From the NCBI RefSeq assembly GCF_965363235.1, contig NC_134846.1, positions 59,757,121-59,821,120 of the forward strand: a DNA stretch of 64,000 bases, read 5' to 3'. The notes under the pieces are model-generated. The model saw nothing but the letters and a program-made list of their open reading frames with translations. It made no database searches and was not told the DNA's origin. Positions 14,301-17,300 of the stretch are shown piece by piece. Each line of letters starts with the position of its first letter. Within the stretch, counting starts at the first letter, position 1. Origin of the DNA: Mytilus galloprovincialis. Taxonomy: Eukaryota > Mollusca > Bivalvia > Mytilida > Mytilidae. Made by a program: the position numbers and the translations under genes.

Positions 14301-17300
14301 AGGACCGATAATTTTTATTTGCACTCTGATTATGTCTTTCACAATTACATGTATCATTGTGAGAAAGGCAACAAGCAATTAATATTTAATTCAACTTTAA
14401 AATAACTTTAATTAGTAGTAGAAAAACATCTTTATCAATCAGATAAATTATACTTTAATTATCATGATCTACATAAATTGTTAAGAACTACCAAATAGTG
14501 TATATTGTACCTTGCAAGTTTTTCATGAAGTATCTTATACCAGAATAGAATTGTGTCTTTGATGAATTTGAGGAGATGTTTACAATGGGATCCACTGTGT
14601 TTATGATAAACATGAGTCATGGTCTGAAAACTTTCCACAGCATTACTCATGACATCTGTCAACATAGCCGTCTGAATATCTGAACTAAAATATAAAATAT
14701 ATGACAATAAGACATGTGTCATGGTCTGAAAACTTTCCACAGCATTACTCATTACATCTGTTAACATAGCCGTCTGAATATCTGAACTAAAATATAAAAT
14801 ATATGACAATACGACATGTGTCATGGTCTGAAAACTTTCAACAGCATTAGTCATGACATATGTCAACATAGCCGTCTGAATATCTGAACTAAAATATAAA
14901 ATATATGACAATACGACATGTGTCATGGTCTGAAAACTTTCCACAGCATTACTCATGACATCTGTTAACATAGCCGTCTGAATATCTGAACTAAAATATA
15001 AAATATATGACAATGAGACATGTGTCATGGTCTGAAAACTTTCAACAGCATTAGTCATTACATCTGTTAACATAGCCGTCTGAATATATCTGAACTAAAA
15101 TATAAAATATATGACAATAAGACATGTGTCATGGTCCTAAAAACCACAGCATTGGTCATTACATCTGTTAACGTAGCCGTATGAATGTCAGAACTTAAAT
15201 ATAAAATATGTGACAATAAGACATGTGTCATGGTCTGAAAACTTTCCACAGCATTACTCATGACATCTGTTAATGTAGCCGTCTGAATGTCAGAACTAAA
15301 ATATAAAATATTTGACAATAAGACATGTGTCATGGTCTGAAAACTTTCCACAGCATTACTCATGACATCTGTTAATGTAGCCGTCTGAATGTCAGAACTA
15401 AAATATAAAATATATGACAATGAGACATGTGTCATGGTCCTAAAAACCACAGCATTGGTCATTACATCTGTTAACGTAGCCATATGAATGTCAGAACTTA
15501 AATATAAAATATGTGACAATAAGACATGTGTCATGGTCTGAAAACTTTCCACAGCATTACTCATGACATCTGTTAATGTAGCCGTCTGAATGTCAGAACT
15601 AAAATATAAAATATTTGACAATAAGACATGTGCCATGGTCTGAAAATTTTCTACAGCACTTCTCATTACATCTTTCTGCATAGCTGTCTGAATATCAGAA
15701 CTAAAATATAAATACAACATATATGATAGTTAAACTTAAATGTTTTATATGAATCAAATTTTAGTTCTCTATTACTTTTTTAGTTATTCATATATTATCT
15801 TTTTATAATAAACAAGAGTTCTCATTTCTAAGTTGATGAGACCATTACGGCACTTCATTGATAACTATAGGTTAAAATAAATATGTTAAACTGAAACAAC
15901 ATGTTAAACCAAAATTTAATACAGGAGGGGCTAACAGACATACTGTCAAATAATATACTGCAGTGCTATTGTATGCAGGCATTACATGGTGCAAAAAGAA
16001 ATAATGGCAGAGGTTTTATGACAGCCTCAGAAGACTTCTGTATCCATCCTAATTACTCTACCAGCTTGTACCGCATGAAGGTGTAATTTCACTTAACATT
16101 CTATTTTCAACTCTTTATAGATTATACACTGTTATATCATAAGTATGGATATTTTATACATGTTAGATGACAATTAAAAATCTATGTAGTATAACTGACC
16201 TCATTTTGTCAACTTCTTCTATCAGCTGTAAGTATGCCAGATAATACTGATACTGTTGAATTTCTGTCGTAACTTTTTCCAGTTCTTTACAAACATCCTG
16301 TTGATTTCTAACATGTTCCACGACCTGTTGATGAAGGTTATCTTTACGGTGTTGTATGTTTGTCACCTCAGTCTGTGTATCATTAGCACCTTGTGTAGCA
16401 TCGTCTATCTCAGTAGGCAAACTTGAGCTGGCTTCATGTAACTGAAAAATAAAAGCTTTTTTTATGACATTCAGAAATTAACTTGGATGCTTATAGTTTA
16501 TGAGTAGAGATTTTTGCATTATCAAACATTTGTAAACACAATGTCTCAAAAAGTCAGTGGCCTAAGTTTTTAGCACCGATTATACCAATCACTTTCAGTG
16601 ATATTGTTTGCCTTAAATTAGTGGAAAATAAAGGCTTTTTCCCCTGGAAAAGAATCCCGATTTGAAAAAAAAATGGCTTAAAATTATTCCCAAAAAGACA
16701 ACTTTTGTCCAAAACAGTGCGTCTCAGTAGTAAATGTGCATGAACAATGATGAATACAAACTGAAAAACACCATACCTGTCAACTGACCCGTATGTGACC
16801 CGAGATTTTCACAATTCTGAGGGATCACCCCGAACACCCACCGGGTCATTAAATTCAAAAAATGACCCGATTTCACCCGTATTTCTTAGCCTTGAGATTG
16901 ATTTCATAAGTGATATTCCTTTGAAATACCGGCAAATTCGTAATTCTTCCATGAACAGGAAGTTCATCTAGCTATGTAAACTGTCAAATTAAGTGACCCA
17001 TTAAGTGCATGGCTTCACTTGACAGCTTTGGTGTCAAACACACTGTTAATTAACACCAATTACCTTAGCTTTAGGTCGTAAATAAATTGCACCTGTCTGG
17101 TCCATTGGTTTACAAACTGAACTAGAGTTACTTCCCCTTATTTGTCACCATTTAAAATTATTCCTTATATTTACATTTTATGGGTGAAAAAGATTAAATC
17201 ATAAAAATATAAAATTCAAATACATATTGAAAAATAACTTTTCATTGCTTTATACCTTTATACATTTTTTTTTTAAAAGTTGAAAATTATTTTTTACATT

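What the first reader, a model, noticed from the sequence alone, without database searches (positions are those of the whole stretch)
14616..15717. Splice acceptor plus start of RINT1 exon 3 amplified into 11 tandem, mostly in-frame units
Seen: 11 units, period 102 bp in seven of ten steps, each carrying a T-rich stretch ending in TTTTAG followed by the exon's first 73 bases. 102 is divisible by 3 and the 29-nt 'intronic' part has no stop, so read-through adds 34 codons per unit. Known: RINT1 is a conserved single-copy tether whose equivalent region in human has no such repeat. Inference: the array offers the spliceosome a ladder of equivalent acceptors and could yield RINT1 isoforms with extra ([20 protein letters not shown]...LSYILYF) repeats next to the coiled coil, or acts as decoy sites. 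I know of no description of this.
Basis: partly seen in the sequence, partly recalled or inferred. Interest (0 to 1): 0.85.

Follow-up and report, generated by a model that had tools for sequence, protein, structure and literature searches.

The report
Mirage minisatellite at RINT1 splice site
In a mussel gene called RINT1, a short piece of DNA straddling the border of an intron and an exon has been copied eleven times in a row; this kind of repeat is already known from lancelets, and here it most likely rides along in the intron rather than making new protein versions.

Summary
The array is real: 11 minus-strand units, 7 of 10 steps exactly 102 bp, each carrying a 3' splice site plus about the first 73 bases of RINT1 exon 3. 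The frame claim is only partly right: acceptors 8-11 read open, but a 2-base insertion in unit 7 sends acceptors 1-7 into a stop. Units hold no donor-like site as good as the real one, so they are surplus acceptors, not exons. Changes are synonymous-biased in the exon-derived part (8 of 13) but not in the intron-derived tail (0 of 5), which fits copies of a constrained exon better than a translated array. The same gene has a second, degenerate array of four acceptors at 9000-8844. Among 60 other exon loci two show donor-border duplications, and intronic tandem repeats are common. This matches the 'mirage' minisatellites of amphioxus, reported to leave splicing normal (PMC3087553, PMC3902484, passages). 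I file it as a new member of that kind, in a bivalve. A smaller chance remains that acceptors 8-10 give RINT1 forms with 34, 68 or 102 extra residues. No RNA or second individual could be examined.

The parts
14606..15712 (-). Boundary-spanning minisatellite, 11 units of about 102 bp (29 intron-like + 73 exon-like)
14511..14684 (-). RINT1 exon 3 as it would be with the last acceptor (unit 11), 174 nt
14685..14990 (-). Units 8-10: acceptors 14990, 14888, 14786 in frame; would add 306, 204, 102 nt
14991..15094 (-). Unit 7, with the 2-nt insertion at 15087-15086 that breaks the frame
15095..15700 (-). Units 1-6: open among themselves but run into the stop in unit 7; units 3 and 6 carry a complex change 3 nt shorter
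16200..16441 (-). RINT1 exon 2 (ends after two bases of a codon; joins all acceptors in the same phase)
19447..19569 (-). RINT1 exon 1, from the putative start codon
8844..9000 (-). Second boundary-spanning array in RINT1: acceptors 9000, 8943, 8894 before the real exon start 8844; steps 57, 49, 50

Best explanation
A boundary-spanning minisatellite of the amphioxus 'mirage' kind. A short duplication copied the end of intron 2 with the start of exon 3 of RINT1, and unequal exchange or slippage expanded it to 11 units (inferred). The unit next to the rest of the exon (unit 11) is the real one; the others lie in the intron. Splicing most likely joins exon 2 mainly to acceptor 11, because that gives the shortest exon (174 nt, easiest to define) and the form without added residues; the other acceptors are mostly silent, or their products are lost to nonsense-mediated decay (acceptors 1-7). 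Shown: anatomy, frames, lack of donors by a simple consensus count, codon pattern, further examples in the genome. Inferred: which acceptor is used, decay, and the copying mechanism.
For: Anatomy and frames. No donor-like site with 6 or more of 9 consensus matches in 15740-14480 other than the exon 3 donor, which itself scores 6. Codon pattern: 8 of 13 changes synonymous in the exon-derived part (expected 19-22%, P about 0.001-0.003), 0 of 5 in the tail (Fisher P 0.036). Unit 1 at the border is the most diverged (77-87% to the rest) while inner units are up to 100% alike, as in amphioxus BflGb6. Second array, out of frame, in the same gene. Two further border duplications among 60 other exon loci. 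Amphioxus mirages reported not to interfere with regular splicing.
Against: No RNA. Ten of 11 acceptors share almost the same 29 nt, so sequence alone does not say why the last should win; a first-come choice would favour unit 1. Units 8-11 being open is also what a coding array would show. The synonymous bias by itself would also fit translated units, and the tail result rests on five changes (0 of 5 synonymous has a 0.22 chance under neutrality). Unit-number variation, a usual mark of minisatellites, is untested.
Confidence: 0.8

Rival explanations
1. Isoform ladder: acceptors 8-11 are all used and RINT1 carries 0-3 extra 34-residue segments ([25 protein letters not shown]+LLSYILYFS type) after its coiled-coil part.
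For: Acceptors 8-11 are in frame and open; near-identical upstream sequences; synonymous bias in the exon-derived part.
Against: Tail changes are all replacement changes (0 of 5); units 9 and 10 have lost the YTNAY site at -24; the second array in the gene is out of frame, so frame is not a rule of such arrays.
Confidence: 0.12
2. Decoy or damping device: acceptors 1-7 catch a share of transcripts and send them to nonsense-mediated decay, lowering or tuning RINT1 output.
For: All of acceptors 1-7 lead to a stop in unit 7 and they are transcribed first.
Against: No sign of maintenance; the stop depends on one 2-nt insertion in one unit, which may be polymorphic; no RNA.
Confidence: 0.06
3. Assembly artefact or collapsed or expanded repeat.
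For: Only one assembly seen; unit number in tandem arrays is easily misjudged.
Against: Units differ from each other (77-100%), the array is 1.1 kb in a 94.7 Mb contig, and a second similar array and other border duplications exist. The exact unit number and the 2-nt insertion could still be wrong.
Confidence: 0.02

Closest known systems
'Mirage' minisatellites of amphioxus (Adh3; globins BflGb6 and BflGb9; similar repeats in PGBD5; troponin C cited)
   Same: Tandem copies of an intron-exon border holding splice signals. BflGb6 copies the 3' end of an intron plus the 5' part of exon 2, as here; its units are 81-100% identical; border units escape homogenisation; regular splicing reported undisturbed (passages of PMC3087553, and PMC3902484).
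   Different: A bivalve, not a cephalochordate; 11 units (BflGb6: 6 and 3 on two haplotypes); period mostly a multiple of 3, with the last four units in frame. Length instability known there, untested here. The original Adh3 paper was not held.
Internal tandem repeats at exon-intron borders of human genes in segmental duplications
   Same: Repeats at exon-intron borders that can change splicing (passages of PMC2812944).
   Different: Those cases have transcript evidence of changed splicing and lie in recently duplicated paralogs; here one place was found and there is no transcript evidence.

Membership tests
Mirage (boundary-spanning) minisatellite | Repeat unit spans an exon-intron border | tested here: met
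   29 nt intron-like + 73 nt exon-like per unit
Mirage (boundary-spanning) minisatellite | Units carry copied splice signals | tested here: met
   AG after a T-rich stretch in 11 of 11
Mirage (boundary-spanning) minisatellite | Inner units homogenised, border units diverged | tested here: met
   u2 and u5 100%, u3 and u6 99%; unit 1 77-87% to the rest. Met at one border only: unit 11 is 85-97% to units 2-10
Mirage (boundary-spanning) minisatellite | Length instability between haplotypes or in soma | not testable with these tools
   one assembly, no reads
Mirage (boundary-spanning) minisatellite | Regular splicing undisturbed | not testable with these tools
   no RNA data
Tandem alternative exons (duplicated exons) | Each unit has an acceptor and a donor | tested here: not met
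   no donor-like site of 6 or more of 9 in the array (recalled consensus, simple count)
Translated coding repeat array | Whole array open in one frame | tested here: not met
   unit 7 breaks the frame; units 8-11 alone are open
Translated coding repeat array | Coding constraint along the whole unit | tested here: inconclusive
   bias in exon-derived part (8 of 13), none in the tail (0 of 5); small numbers

The most novel reading that the evidence does not exclude
Mussel RINT1 uses acceptors 8-11 as a ladder whose length varies between individuals, so that a membrane-tether protein comes in heritable forms with 0-3 or more extra 34-residue segments, while the insertion in unit 7 marks the border beyond which acceptors only feed decay. 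More widely, mirage minisatellites are a general and overlooked source of splice variation in mussels.
Probability: 0.12. Interest if true: 0.75.

Novelty: new member of a known kind. Interest (0 to 1): 0.4.

Why it matters
The published mirages that I found are all from amphioxus. Two such arrays in one mussel gene, and two border duplications among 60 other exon loci, suggest the process is not peculiar to lancelets. Eleven acceptors, ten with almost the same upstream 29 nt and differing mainly in position, are a natural experiment on how the spliceosome chooses among equal 3' splice sites, readable directly from RNA. The array may also keep past synonymous variants of the exon.

Tried and rejected
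Rejected: tandem alternative exons (no donors); a wholly translated array (frame broken in unit 7); a dispersed repeat (one place found). L065 first looked like a border array, but its 75-bp units begin about 15 nt inside the intron, so it is not counted as spanning. L062 has a 24-bp two-copy repeat that ends at the acceptor AG and holds almost no exon; it did not pass the cut-off and is not counted. Not inspected: TRF rows near match edges in L026, L043 and L049, and weak edge matches in L015, L040, L045, L056, L073 (E 8e-5 to 0.004).

PDB searches and Pfam with the open stretch and the deduced N-terminus gave no relative over any cut-off, so the tie of exon 3 to RINT1 rests on its joining in frame with the other exons and on the PF04437 matches downstream. 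A gap-free match of the one-unit form to human RINT1 is recall; no comparison was run. A structure prediction was unfinished at its last collection and is not used. Paper searches: (nine answered), 15 of 120 and, 15 of 172 papers were listed, and I opened only PMC3087553, PMC3902484 and PMC2812944, as passages.

Full report
Setting. The window lies in a genome of 1.38 Gb in 331 contigs that has 17 myticin-family matches; I take it for a Mytilus-type mussel, though no call names the species. On the minus strand, six PF04437 (RINT1_TIP1) matches, 3 of 6 over the cut-off, lie downstream of the array. Exon 1 (19569-19447), exon 2 (16441-16200), exon 3 (14684-14511) and the beginning of exon 4 (from 14088) join in one open frame; the end of exon 4 is not settled. 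Pfam and PDB give no relative for this N-terminal part.

Observation. Eleven tandem units, each an intron end (29 nt) plus the start of exon 3 (about 73 nt); steps of 102 in 7 of 10, 99 in 2, 104 in 1. All 11 keep the AG. One place in the genome.

Frame. Joined to exons 1, 2 and 4, acceptors 8, 9, 10 and 11 read open and add 306, 204, 102 and 0 nt; acceptors 1-7 meet a stop in unit 7, which has an extra AT. So 4 of 11 acceptors are usable for protein. A count of matches to the donor consensus (6 or more of 9) found only the exon 3 donor, itself 6 of 9. The splice consensus used is recalled, not derived from mussel data.

Acceptor quality. Pyrimidines at -20 to -4 are 11 or 12 of 17 in all 11. 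A YTNAY branch-like site with its A at -24 is present in 8 of 11 (units 2-8 and 11); unit 1 has one at -30; units 9 and 10 have lost it; a further YTNAY at -9, too close to the AG to serve, is in all 11. By these simple measures no acceptor is clearly superior; 11 is among the intact ones.

Origin and turnover. Units are 77-100% alike; 2 and 5 are identical, 3 and 6 are 99% alike, and unit 1 is the most diverged. That is block copying with one border unit left out. Exon 3 just past the copied part (GTTTATCATAAAC) and the intron before unit 1 (CTATCATATATG) share TATCATA; a microhomology start is an inference.

Codon test. In units 2-11 the exon-derived part has 16 variable columns (2, 5 and 9 at codon positions 1, 2, 3). 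Without the three in the complex change of units 3 and 6, 8 of 13 are synonymous, against 19-22% expected (P about 0.001-0.003). The tail has 4 variable columns of 29 with 5 changes, none synonymous in the same frame; the chance of 0 of 5 is 0.22 under neutrality, and the contrast with the exon part has Fisher P 0.036. Unit 1 differs from unit 11 in 10 codons, 4 of them synonymous. The lack of stops is unremarkable: chance 0.42 for 18 random changes, 0.21 for 32, 0.11 for 45. I read this as variants filtered in the real exon and then copied into the array. Translated units whose tail may vary freely would give the same picture, so this leans against the ladder without excluding it.

Second array and survey. 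At another RINT1 acceptor (8844) three degenerate copies lie upstream (9000, 8943, 8894; steps 57, 49, 50); reading from each of the three meets stops. Of five RINT1 exons tested at both ends (one of these ends is a start codon, and the ends of exon 4 and of the 8844 exon are provisional), only these two acceptors had tandem copies. In 60 further loci (30 myosin-head and 30 TCP1 matches, L016-L075), 3 of 120 match edges had a tandem copy within 300 nt at E <= 1e-4, against 94 of 960 probes placed away from the matches, in 25 of 60 loci. Match edges only approximate exon borders, some loci lie in the same gene, and probes in one array are not independent, so the lower rate at edges is descriptive. 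On reading, L031 (myosin, donor side, 3 copies of about 47 bp) and L068 (TCP1 family, donor side, 2 copies about 120 bp apart) span a border; L065 does not. So tandem repeats are common in this genome's introns, and now and then one spans a border; periods of about 47-57 and 120 show that a multiple of three is not a rule.

Comparison. PMC3087553 (passages) describes minisatellite-like duplications of intron-exon borders in amphioxus globin genes, named mirages after the Adh3 case, with 6 and 3 units on two haplotypes, 81-100% identity, border units left out of homogenisation, and RT-PCR that suggests regular splicing, while noting that copied signals could act as cryptic sites. PMC3902484 (passage) reports similar repeats in PGBD5 and cites troponin C. 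PMC2812944 (passages) reports repeats at human exon-intron borders that alter splicing. The Adh3 paper itself is not held. RINT1 with Mytilus gave 0 papers; minisatellite, intron-exon, alternative splicing and bivalve together gave 0. The library holds open-licence papers only.

Verdict. Real; a new member of a known kind, with a bivalve host and an unusually long run of in-phase acceptors. The ladder idea is not excluded for acceptors 8-10 and is directly testable with RNA.

Noticed in passing
window 8844-9000, minus strand: Second boundary-spanning array in RINT1 with four acceptors, upstream ones out of use by stops.
   Followed up: yes
L031 1405-1549; L068 1616-1803: Donor-border tandem duplications in a myosin-head gene and a TCP1-family gene of the same genome.
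   Followed up: partly
L062 1648-1695: 24-bp two-copy repeat that duplicates an acceptor's intron end right up to the AG before a TCP1-family exon.
   Followed up: partly
window 15398-15496 and 15095-15193 (units 3 and 6): Complex change, net 3 nt shorter, that makes an extra TTTTTAG acceptor-like site inside the unit.
   Followed up: no
window 25067-26004, 31577-32714, 44961-45964: 161/162-bp and 35-bp tandem arrays occur near each other three times, probably copies of one dispersed element with internal repeats.
   Followed up: no
window 5710-6278: Perfect 285-bp tandem duplication within the span of the RINT1 gene.
   Followed up: no
L065 1887-2863; L041 218-1116: Long intronic minisatellites, 75 bp x 13 and 60 bp x 15; a lone copy of the L065 unit starts about 15 nt after a donor.
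   Followed up: partly
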